NCBI GenBank assembly: GCA_900618795.1
Contig: UYJD01000003.1
Location: 220,262 to 284,261, forward strand
Direction: 5' to 3'
DNA from: Cyanodermella asteris
Lineage: Eukaryota; Ascomycota; Lecanoromycetes; Ostropales; Stictidaceae
DNA: 64,000 nt
Position 1 is the first letter of the stretch. Each line of letters begins with the position of its first letter. Of this stretch, positions 15,403 through 18,184 are shown one piece after another. The notes under the pieces were generated by a model that saw nothing but the letters and a program-made list of their open reading frames with translations, ran no database searches and was not told the origin of the DNA. A program made the position numbers and the translations under genes.

Positions 15403-16184
15403 AACTGAGAATATGATGTCAAATGATGATTTCTCAAAGTTTACGTTTGAGAGCTCTGGTGTTTCCGGATGAGCCTGCGGGCTTGCAAGATGCCGAGAAG
15501 GGTGCTCGTTGAGTATATGGCTTGGCGCCTGAGTTGCCGCTTCGGGTACTGAATAGAGCTTTTCATGTCACACAGTGCTTTCAGATCGACCGTCCCCTCT
15601 CTTATCCGAGCAGTGAAAATGCGGCTATTTGCGACCGTCTCGTCTGTCATGTCTATTTCCACCCTTGGCCTGCTGGGGGAGACTCTGACAATGCTGTCGG
15701 CGGAGGTGGCGTTCTTTGCATCTGGGAACAACTCCTGCCACGTGGAAGCCATAGGTTTGATCGGATAGAGTAGGCCGCTCCCGCCAATCCAGTTCTTTTC
15801 TTGGCTGCCTCTTCTGCTTTTCCTGTTCATTGTCTCCTCGGTGGAGCCCGTTCGAGCGGGCGAGACGGCCGCAAATCTAGTCGACCTCAAAGACCTTTGC
15901 GCTATACTCTTTATAATCTTCTCTATTCAACACCATATGCGAGCTGTTGATTCCCTGGGCCACTCAAAACGCATTGACAGCATGGCTAGCTTGATGAAGC
16001 ACTGTCGTATACAAAAGGCGAGGCAGTGTCCATGTTGTCCAAATCTTCATCCCGACTCGCATCTCCGGATCTTCCTCTCGCTCATAACAATCAAGTTCAC
16101 GGTCACCGACCCTCCTTGCACAGTCTACCAACTACAATTCTTTCGTTACCAGCAGAGTAAAGCAAAACTTCGAACTCGGTCAAA
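15403..16184. other. intergenic, with one doubtful minus-strand frame
   Basis: The right end is the promoter and leader of the pheromone-like gene. A 129-codon minus-strand frame (listed separately) is the only candidate gene. Confidence 0.4.
15441..15830 (-). CDS. doubtful hypothetical protein
   Basis: An open frame of 129 aa from the ATG at 15830, starting MNRKSRRGSQEK. It contains a stretch (MASTWQELFPDAKN, then SIVRVSPSRPRVEIDMTDE) that looks like normal protein sequence. No family, signal peptide or membrane segment is recognised. It could equally be a chance frame; no splice evidence supports it. Confidence 0.22.
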   Translation of the reverse strand: MNRKSRRGSQEKNWIGGSGLLYPIKPMASTWQELFPDAKNATSADSIVRVSPSRPRVEIDMTDETVANSRIFTARIREGTVDLKALCDMKSSIQYPKRQLRRQAIYSTSTLLGILQARRLIRKHQSSQT

Positions 16185-16790
16185 ATGCAGTTCTCCGTTG
16201 TCACCATCATTGCGTTCATCGCCGCCACGACCGTCGCCGCTCCTTCCGCCAGAAGCAATTGTGAGAGACGTGGTGAACCATGCTCCAAGGTGAAGCGTGA
16301 GGCTATATCCGCCGCCCGTTCAAACTGCTTCAGAGTTGGTGAACCATGTTCCAAGCTGAAGCGTGCCGCCGACCTCGTCGACGACATTCTGGAGGAAACC
16401 CACAACAGCACCGAAAACGCCTTCGAGCACGTCGAGGGGGGCGAGTACGCCCTCGCCAAGCGCAACGCTCTCATGATCCGTGAGGCCATCGCTGAGGCCG
16501 AGGCAATTGCTCTTCCCGAAAGTCGATCGTCTTGCTTCCGTATTGGTGAGCCCTGCAGCAAGGCGAAGCGTGAGGCACTGGCTTCGGCCGAAGCCGAAGC
16601 AAGGTCCAATTGCTCGAGACGTGGGGAGCCCTGCAGCAAGGTTAAGCGTGATGCCGATGCCAGGTCCAATTGCAACCGCCGGGGTGAGCCCTGCACCAAG
16701 CTGAAGAGGGCTGTCGAGATCATTGACGAGCTTACCACCGGCGACGACGAGGCGCTCGCTCACGTCAAGGCTGCCATCAGCAAGCTCTAG
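16185..16790 (+). CDS. secreted five-repeat peptide precursor, alpha-pheromone-like
   Basis: Intronless, 201 aa, ATG in the context CAAAATG. Residues 1-19 are a secretion signal (hydrophobic core, then TVAAPSA). Five 15-residue repeats follow at 24-38, 46-60, 115-129, 141-155 and 161-175, each of the form S-N/S-C-x-R-x-G-E-P-C-S/T-K-x-K-R. Each repeat ends in KR, the Kex2 cleavage site. The following spacers begin with Ste13-type dipeptides (EA, AA, DADA). An extra KR lies at 92-93 and an N-glycosylation site NST at 74-76. This is the layout of an ascomycete alpha-factor precursor. The core CxRxGEPC resembles known mature peptides such as Trichoderma WCYRIGEPCW, but the flanking tryptophans are missing. 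It may therefore be the mating pheromone of this lineage or another Kex2-processed repeat peptide (for example a RiPP precursor). A 23-A tract follows at 16900. Confidence 0.82.
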   Translation: MQFSVVTIIAFIAATTVAAPSARSNCERRGEPCSKVKREAISAARSNCFRVGEPCSKLKRAADLVDDILEETHNSTENAFEHVEGGEYALAKRNALMIREAIAEAEAIALPESRSSCFRIGEPCSKAKREALASAEAEARSNCSRRGEPCSKVKRDADARSNCNRRGEPCTKLKRAVEIIDELTTGDDEALAHVKAAISKL

Positions 16791-16899: not shown

Positions 16900-16922
16900 A
16901 AAAAAAAAAAAAAAAAAAAAAA
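16900..16922 (+). repeat. poly-A tract downstream of the peptide precursor gene
   Basis: Twenty-three consecutive A, 110 bp after the stop codon of the pheromone-like gene and preceded by a T-rich stretch. It could be a simple homopolymer or the genomic trace of a poly-A tail. Confidence 0.9.
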
Positions 16923-17779: not shown

Positions 17780-18184
17780 ATGTCCGCCCCTACAGACAGC
17801 CAGACCCAGCCTGCCAACGGCGGCGTCAAGATTCGAGGCGGACCACACAAGATCCAAGGCATCCAAAAGTCCGCTCAAGAAGCCCAGGCCGAGCGCGAAC
17901 GCTTCGCACACGAGCAAGGCACGACCAAAGAGCCGGGAGAGGGCGAACAAGCCAACCCCGCGATTTCGCACATTCGGGGCGGACCGAACAAGATCCAGGG
18001 AATCAAAGACTCGGTTGCTACGGCTGAAAAGGAGAGGGAGGCGGACGGCGAACAAGGTGGACAGCCGCACCCGGCTATTGCCAAATTGAGAGGTGGACCG
18101 AATAAGATCCAGGCGATTAAGGAGAGTGCTGCCAGGGCGGAGGAGGAGAGGAAGAAGTCTGCGCAAGAGGGAGATGGTTGTTGA
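17780..18184 (+). CDS. small soluble protein with three RGGP-KIQ repeats
   Basis: Intronless, 134 aa, starting MSAPTDSQ. It consists of three copies of a unit of about 25 residues at 18-43, 65-88 and 103-127. The unit is I/L-RGGP-H/N-KIQ-G/A-I followed by a charged, alanine- and glutamate-rich helix (for example KESAARAEEERK). The units are separated by Gly/Glu/Gln-rich linkers. There is no signal peptide or membrane segment. The composition (polar, Gly, Glu, Lys, Ala) recalls hydrophilin-like stress proteins, but that is only an analogy. No named family is recognised. The strong repeat conservation argues that it is a real, selected gene. Confidence 0.8.
   Translation: MSAPTDSQTQPANGGVKIRGGPHKIQGIQKSAQEAQAERERFAHEQGTTKEPGEGEQANPAISHIRGGPNKIQGIKDSVATAEKEREADGEQGGQPHPAIAKLRGGPNKIQAIKESAARAEEERKKSAQEGDGC

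What the first reader, a model, noticed from the sequence alone, without database searches (positions are those of the whole stretch)
16185..16790. Alpha-pheromone-like precursor with five tryptophan-free CxRxGEPC repeats
The frame encodes a signal peptide and five 15-residue repeats, each ending in KR and followed by Ste13-type dipeptides. This is the plan of ascomycete alpha-factor precursors. The core CxRxGEPC matches known mature peptides (Trichoderma WCYRIGEPCW), but each repeat begins S-N-C or S-S-C and ends in C-S/T-K, so the flanking Trp residues are absent. The five repeats are also not identical (x = E, F, F, S, N), whereas many pheromone precursors keep identical copies. It may be a diverged mating pheromone of this lineage or a separate Kex2-processed secreted peptide family.
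Basis: partly seen in the sequence, partly recalled or inferred. Interest (0 to 1): 0.75.

Follow-up and report, generated by a model that had tools for sequence, protein, structure and literature searches.

The report
Tryptophan-free fungal alpha-pheromone precursor
This gene most likely makes the alpha mating pheromone of an ascomycete fungus, a protein cut into five small two-cysteine signal peptides; it is an ordinary kind of gene with an unusual but not unprecedented peptide sequence.

Summary
An intronless 201-aa frame (16185-16790) has a hydrophobic signal-like start, five copies of RS[NS]CxR[RVI]GEPC[ST]K[VLA]KR and no Trp. It has one match, itself, in a 28.5-Mb fungal genome. Best reading: the alpha-type mating-pheromone precursor of this fungus (0.85). 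New support: between Kex2 sites and peptides, 16 of 20 in-phase second positions are Ala/Pro against 1 of 20 out of phase. Repeat codons differ mostly synonymously in all ten pairs. The genome holds one Ste2, one Ste3 and a probable MAT1-2 locus. Pattern scans found no second alpha-pheromone array (WC...C or Pleosporales PYGxPxG). The nearest UstYa match on the contig is about 355 kb away, against a RiPP. Loss of Trp is not new: Leotiomycete RCGHPGQPCG and Huntiella NSNGGLPGELL lack it; two-Cys alpha pheromones are reported for 13 Dothideomycetes. Copies 2 and 3 (CFR[VI]GEPC) differ from Trichoderma CYRIGEPC by two and one residues. Organism unidentified, expression untested, no relative alignable. 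A new member of a known kind.

The parts
16185..16790 (+). alpha-pheromone-type precursor gene, intronless, 201 aa plus stop
   Evidence: open frame; single match in own genome; repeat pairs show pS 0.47-0.79 against pN 0.16-0.35, pS larger in 10 of 10 pairs
16185..16238 (+). signal sequence MQFSVVTIIAFIAATTVA, cleavage inferred after A18
   Evidence: hydrophobic N terminus and T-V-A at -3 to -1, by inspection; no signal-peptide predictor was available; a cut after A19 would be out of register
16239..16250 (+). AP-SA, Ste13-type dipeptides before copy 1
   Evidence: sequence
16251..16298 (+). copy 1: RSNCERRGEPCSKV-KR
16299..16316 (+). EA-IS-AA spacer before copy 2
16317..16364 (+). copy 2: RSNCFRVGEPCSKL-KR
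16365..16463 (+). acidic central spacer AADLVDDILEETHNSTENAFEHVEGGEYALAKR with an N-glycosylation sequon (N-S-T, 16404-16412)
   Evidence: sequence; sequon by inspection
16464..16523 (+). NA-LM-IR-EA-IA-EA-EA-IA-LP-ES, Ste13-type run before copy 3
16524..16571 (+). copy 3: RSSCFRIGEPCSKA-KR, core one residue from T. reesei CYRIGEPC
   Evidence: T. reesei peptide from PMC3068285
16572..16601 (+). EA-LA-SA-EA-EA, perfect Ste13 run before copy 4
16602..16649 (+). copy 4: RSNCSRRGEPCSKV-KR
16650..16661 (+). DA-DA, perfect Ste13 run before copy 5
16662..16709 (+). copy 5: RSNCNRRGEPCTKL-KR
16710..16787 (+). C-terminal tail AVEIIDELTTGDDEALAHVKAAISKL, weakly similar to the central spacer (local score 29; 118 of 5000 shuffles as good)

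Best explanation
The gene encodes the alpha-type mating-pheromone precursor of this ascomycete. The protein enters the secretory pathway. Kex2 cuts after the KR pairs and Kex1 trims the KR. A Ste13-type dipeptidase removes X-Ala/X-Pro dipeptides in register up to the Arg, releasing five 14-residue peptides of the form RS[NS]CxR[RVI]GEPC[ST]K[VLA]. These act as ligands of the species' Ste2 receptor on the mating partner, with the central Gly-Glu turn and the two Cys in the places of Gly-Gln and Cys in known two-Cys alpha pheromones. Shown here: the precursor anatomy, the dipeptide register, codon-level constraint between repeats, a single match in the genome, and presence of Ste2, Ste3 and a probable MAT1-2 locus. 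Inferred: the processing itself, the exact peptide ends, secretion, receptor binding and mating role.
For: Signal-like start and five KR-ended repeats. Ste13 register: the four KR-to-Arg spacers all have even length, with Ala/Pro at 16 of 20 second positions against 1 of 20 first positions (Fisher p 1.1e-6; 0 of 200000 within-spacer shuffles); copy 1, not in that count, is preceded by AP-SA. Repeats: pS exceeds pN in 10 of 10 (non-independent) pairs. One match in 28.5 Mb. No other KR-spaced array among 22 further C-x3-G[QE]PC hits, none among 5 WC-x3-G[QE]xC hits (4 in the control), and 0 PYG[LM]P[IV]G hits. Ste2 present, E 3.2e-80, its first frame matching the solved yeast alpha-factor receptor, E 1.2e-12; Ste3 present, E 1.5e-66. 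An HMG-box gene lies between an ANTH and I/LWEQ gene (SLA2 type) and an Exo_endo_phos gene (APN2 type), with ANAPC5 and CIA30 beyond. Literature: T. reesei WCYRIGEPCW (PMC3068285, passages); 13 Dothideomycetes with two-Cys alpha pheromones and Xylona RFCHLPGQGCSK, which shares R..C...G..CSK in outline (PMC6339444 section 8); Trp-free RCGHPGQPCG (PMC10569646, passages).
Against: No relative could be aligned: the fungal collections needed are not held, and the prokaryote and viral scans gave none (29 and 4 pattern stretches, none confirmed). Pfam has no accepted match; its four weak hits (E 0.0025 to 0.1) are below cut-off. Copies 1, 4 and 5 carry RR inside the core, which Kex2 could cut. In-phase dipeptides IS, ES, LM and IR are poor Ste13 substrates (recalled). 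Kex1 trimming would leave V, L or A after SK, so the C terminus is less clean than in WC...CW peptides. The register test was devised after seeing the sequence. No expression or mating data; Kex2 and Ste13 genes were not searched for. The MAT1-2 call is not complete: the HMG profile matched 31 of 69 positions and the downstream 290 aa had no Pfam match. A precursor of quite different sequence elsewhere could have been missed by the patterns.
Confidence: 0.85

Rival explanations
1. A separate Kex2-processed repeat protein (KEP) whose peptides serve another secreted signal, for example hyphal communication or host contact, while the true alpha pheromone is elsewhere and unrecognised.
For: KEPs are widespread and their functions largely unknown (PMC9769878, start of abstract in the listing). 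The five copies are all different. [quoted passage not shown]
Against: The core matches the two-Cys alpha-pheromone pattern, no other array was found by pattern, and the one Ste2 gene looks intact apart from a presumed intron, so some ligand should exist.
Confidence: 0.1
2. A disulfide-stabilised small secreted protein or effector in which the five Cys pairs fold together rather than being cut apart.
For: Ten Cys in five evenly built pairs; sub-threshold Pfam hits, two of them to small Cys-rich families.
Against: AlphaFold2 on the single sequence gives mean pLDDT 49.7, 12 residues at 70-90 and none at 90 or more (weak evidence without an alignment). KR pairs end every copy and in-phase dipeptides precede them. 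No PDB relative: 2 hits up to E 1, best 0.3.
Confidence: 0.03
3. A ribosomal peptide natural product (dikaritin type) cyclised by UstYa proteins.
For: Kex2-processed repeats are the shared precursor plan; the genome has many UstYa-like places (68 matches).
Against: None of the 68 matches lies in the window; the nearest on the contig is about 355 kb away. The repeat cores contain no Tyr (the only Tyr is in the central spacer). In PMC7329392, 98.6% of 216 putative fungal pheromone genes had no DUF3328 gene beside them, as here (passage).
Confidence: 0.02

Closest known systems
PPG1 of Trichoderma reesei (Hypocrea jecorina), mature WCYRIGEPCW
   Same: secreted repeat precursor with Kex2 sites; core CYRIGEPC differs from copy 3 CFRIGEPC by one residue (PMC3068285, passages)
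   Different: four copies with flanking Trp; here five unlike copies, no Trp, Arg-Ser-Asn (or Ser) in front and Ser/Thr-Lys behind
Two-Cys alpha pheromones of 13 non-Pleosporalean Dothideomycetes and of Xylona heveae (RFCHLPGQGCSK)
   Same: two conserved Cys; the Xylona motif has six residues between the Cys, Arg in front and CSK at the end, as here (PMC6339444 section 8)
   Different: the Dothideomycete sequences are in a figure and supplement not held here, so identity with them could not be checked; Xylona has GQGC, not GEPC
Leotiomycete alpha factors such as RCGHPGQPCG, RCGARGQGCW, WCGRPGQPC
   Same: Trp absent in the first; N-terminal Arg in the first two; additional unique repeats occur in some species (PMC10569646, passages)
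   Different: GQ turn in place of GE; no Ser-Asn between Arg and Cys; copies identical in many families
Fusarium oxysporum alpha pheromone WCTWRGQPCW
   Same: six residues between the Cys and a central Gly-Gln/Glu turn (PMC7289986, passages)
   Different: three Trp that help bind membranes; none here

Membership tests
Ascomycete alpha-type pheromone precursor (ppg1 / ccg-4 / MFalpha-like) | N-terminal signal sequence | tested here: inconclusive
   hydrophobic stretch and -3/-1 residues fit by inspection; no signal-peptide predictor available
Ascomycete alpha-type pheromone precursor (ppg1 / ccg-4 / MFalpha-like) | repeats of a 9-14 residue peptide, each followed by a Kex1/2 site | tested here: met
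   five 14-residue repeats each followed by KR; definition from PMC10569646
Ascomycete alpha-type pheromone precursor (ppg1 / ccg-4 / MFalpha-like) | Ste13 dipeptides XA/XP before the repeats | tested here: met
   16 of 20 in phase against 1 of 20 out of phase, plus AP-SA before copy 1
Ascomycete alpha-type pheromone precursor (ppg1 / ccg-4 / MFalpha-like) | two-Cys core with central G[QE] turn (most filamentous types) | tested here: met
   C-x3-GE-P-C in 5 of 5 copies
Ascomycete alpha-type pheromone precursor (ppg1 / ccg-4 / MFalpha-like) | flanking Trp of the consensus WCxxGxxCW | tested here: not met
   no Trp in the protein; not defining across classes, since RCGHPGQPCG and NSNGGLPGELL lack it
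Ascomycete alpha-type pheromone precursor (ppg1 / ccg-4 / MFalpha-like) | sequence homology or synteny with a named ppg1 | not testable with these tools
   no fungal genome collection held; prokaryote and viral scans empty
Ascomycete alpha-type pheromone precursor (ppg1 / ccg-4 / MFalpha-like) | activates Ste2 and is needed for mating | not testable with these tools
   Ste2 gene present; function needs experiment
Yeast MFalpha (Pfam MF_alpha, MF_alpha_N) | Pfam match | tested here: not met
   not among the 4 families listed at E up to 10 (HMMER filters drop most weak matches)
Pleosporales PYG[LM]P[IV]G alpha pheromone | PYG[LM]P[IV]G motif | tested here: not met
   absent from this protein and 0 hits in the genome
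Dikaritin-type RiPP precursor | UstYa (DUF3328) gene close by | tested here: not met
   nearest of 68 matches on the contig about 355 kb away
Kex2-processed repeat protein (KEP), general class | secreted protein with repeats interspaced by Kex2 sites | tested here: met
   repeats and KR sites shown; secretion by inspection only

The most novel reading that the evidence does not exclude
One precursor makes two chemically different pheromones. Copies 2 and 3 (CFR[VI]GEPC, Trichoderma-like, no inner dibasic site) would be the main Ste2 ligand. Copies 1, 4 and 5 (CxRRGEPC) carry an inner RR that Kex2 can cut, so they would give either a switchable or inactive two-chain peptide or a second signal with another receptor or dose range.
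Probability: 0.12. Interest if true: 0.55.

Novelty: new member of a known kind. Interest (0 to 1): 0.3.

Why it matters
It gives a probable, directly testable ligand for the Ste2 receptor of a fungus whose genome holds a probable MAT1-2 locus. It is a case that Pfam as held does not recognise; a Cladosporium genome paper likewise reported that no pheromone genes were predicted (PMC4886633, passage). The Ste13 register offers a simple way to fix the mature N terminus of diverged alpha pheromones. The five unlike copies allow a test of how tolerant one receptor is of ligand variation.

Tried and rejected
RiPP reading: rejected, no UstYa match near. Folded Cys-rich protein: not supported, though the fold was from one sequence only. 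A second pheromone gene: pattern scans found none. MAT1-1 idiomorph: PF04769 gave no hit, but the tool warned that nothing rang in its control genomes either, so this is no proof of absence. MAT locus: of nine HMG-box matches (eight loci) I first fetched the surroundings of an exon pair on C6 and saw no SLA2/APN2-like frame there, then those of the C21 one, which has them. In one search I printed only + frames for seven of the eight loci, so the HMG frames of the minus-strand ones (L036-L039, L042) were not read; L043 was not looked at. Promoter scan uses bacterial consensus and says nothing here.

Organism: not identified. Rfam 5.8S gave nothing (39 of 1016 candidates scored), nor did a generic 5.8S probe; the SSU search failed on the machine. 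I did not assign a class; the SLA2-HMG-APN2-ANAPC5 order does not settle it.

Retroposition: a lone A23 tract (16900-16922), the only A or T run of 14 or more in the window and with none in 39 other loci (134,567 bases, some overlapping, one partly masked), lies about 110 bp past the stop. It is followed by GTAAAGC, which also starts 28 bp before the ATG (16157). A match this long arises in 500 of 20000 Markov controls and 49 of 1696 other window pieces, so it is too weak to claim.

Literature: nine strings in three searches (WCYRIGEPCW; RRGEPC, RIGEPC, RVGEPC, GEPCSK, GEPCTK, RSGEPC; GEPC, GQPC, with pheromone). One search returned only the T. reesei paper (RIGEPC) and a NOTCH3 paper (RVGEPC); of the 13 papers most were seen as listing only. 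Supplements and figures, where the Dothideomycete set lies, could not be read. Martin 2011 and the F. oxysporum structure-activity paper are not held (recalled only). The searches (listings) brought no closer relative; PMC4227064 (passages) names Ste2 and Ste3 in Aureobasidium but no pheromone sequence in what I saw. PMC6265332 (passages) reports that genome-inferred pheromones activate most of 45 receptors in yeast; PMC12582325 (one passage) holds no close relative in what I saw.

Full report
What is there. The frame 16185-16790 (+) is open for 201 aa with no intron. It reads as signal-like start, AP-SA, copy 1, EA-IS-AA, copy 2, a 33-residue acidic spacer with an N-glycosylation sequon, a long dipeptide run, copy 3, EA-LA-SA-EA-EA, copy 4, DA-DA, copy 5, and a 26-residue acidic tail. 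The unit is RS[NS]CxR[RVI]GEPC[ST]K[VLA]KR. Five C.R.G[EQ].C motifs occur in the six-frame window; 20 Markov shuffles gave one in total. In the whole genome C-x3-G[QE]-P-C occurs 27 times, 9 for the reversed control; 5 of 27 are here and the other 22 show no KR-spaced array by eye.

Why it looks like a real, selected precursor. Among the ten pairs of repeats, synonymous differences per site (0.47-0.79) exceed nonsynonymous ones (0.16-0.35) in every pair, so the copies are diverged in codons while the peptide is kept; the pairs are not independent. The four spacers from KR to the Arg before S-N-C or S-S-C are 6, 20, 10 and 4 residues, all even. Their second positions are Ala or Pro in 16 of 20 cases, the first positions in 1 of 20 (p 1.1e-6; 0 of 200000 shuffles). 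That is the register of a dipeptidase working from each Kex2 cut to the Arg. The four exceptions (IS, LM, IR, ES) fall in the spacers of copies 2 and 3. For copy 3 I counted from the KR that ends the central spacer; AP-SA before copy 1 was left out of the count. The register was noticed before it was tested, so the p value is descriptive.

Genome context. The window is C12:220262-284261 of a 28,543,958-base, 25-contig assembly. The precursor has one match there, itself. One Ste2 (C3, E 3.2e-80, one stop inside the match that I read as an intron), whose first frame matches the solved yeast alpha-factor receptor (E 1.2e-12), and one Ste3 (C6, E 1.5e-66) are present. An HMG-box gene on C21 lies between an ANTH and I/LWEQ gene (SLA2 type) and an Exo_endo_phos gene (APN2 type; a GRF match is below cut-off), followed by ANAPC5 and CIA30: a probable MAT1-2 locus, as SLA2 and APN2 flank MAT loci in passages of PMC10569646. 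The HMG profile matched only positions 2-32 of 69 there, and the downstream 290 aa had no Pfam match. No MAT1-1 alpha box was found, with the tool's caveat. No canonical WC-x3-G[QE]-x-C array (5 hits against 4 in the control, none in a KR context) and no PYG[LM]P[IV]G (0 hits) were found. Of 68 UstYa matches the nearest on this contig is about 355 kb away. Of ten neighbouring frames scanned, five had an accepted Pfam match: NGP1NT, NmrA, fungal rhodopsin, purine permease and AreA GATA-like domains. Frames were listed only for the first 36 kb of the window.

How it most likely works. Secretion, Kex2 and Kex1 at KR, then Ste13-type trimming to Arg, would release 14-residue peptides read by Ste2 on a partner cell. 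The anatomy and register are shown; the rest is inference from the alpha-factor pathway. In F. oxysporum the central Gly-Gln turn is needed. A D-Ala1,2 analogue is said to have kept Ste2-dependent chemotropism but failed to repress germination, and another passage of the same paper counts Ala1,2 versions among inactive ones (PMC7289986, passages). So the tolerance for losing the first Trp is uncertain from that source, and it says nothing of the last Trp. Three copies here contain RR within the core, and whether Kex2 cuts there is open.

Comparison with the known. Copy 3 CFRIGEPC and T. reesei CYRIGEPC differ by one residue (PMC3068285). Xylona RFCHLPGQGCSK shares Arg in front and CSK at the end, and 13 Dothideomycetes have two-Cys alpha pheromones (PMC6339444 section 8). 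Trp-free RCGHPGQPCG and RCGYPGQPCG, and species with additional unique repeats, are known in Leotiomycetes (PMC10569646); Huntiella has Trp-free and Cys-free NSNGGLPGELL (PMC10182648). So neither Trp loss nor repeat variation is unprecedented. The exact peptides did not appear in the searched text, but figures and supplements were not readable, so they may be in print there.

Results against. There is no alignable relative (those collections hold prokaryotes and viruses), no accepted Pfam or NCBIfam assignment, a poor single-sequence fold that neither helps nor hurts much, the inner RR sites, imperfect dipeptides, and an untidy C terminus. Kex2 and Ste13 genes were not searched for. The organism is unidentified.

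Verdict. This is an alpha-type pheromone precursor with high probability, a new member of a known kind. Interest is modest, higher only if the two repeat subtypes prove to be distinct signals.

Noticed in passing
window 17780-18184 (+): Short frame without an evident signal sequence, with three repeats of the form [IL]RGGPxKIQ[GA]I[QK]xSA; no Pfam or NCBIfam match.
   Followed up: partly
window 16900-16922, with GTAAAGC at 16157 and 16923: Lone A23 tract past the gene's stop with a 7-bp repeat on both sides of the gene: a possible retroposition mark, chance match about 2.5-3%.
   Followed up: partly
G000 genome-wide: 68 UstYa (DUF3328) matches in a 28.5-Mb genome, several in groups on C7, C17, C18 and C19; matches are counted exon by exon.
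   Followed up: no
L046, L047 (G000:C21): Probable MAT1-2 locus with order SLA2-type, HMG gene, APN2-type, ANAPC5, CIA30.
   Followed up: partly
window 16103-16738 (-): Long antisense open frame (211 aa, GTG start) opposite the precursor, most likely a by-product of its codon use.
   Followed up: no
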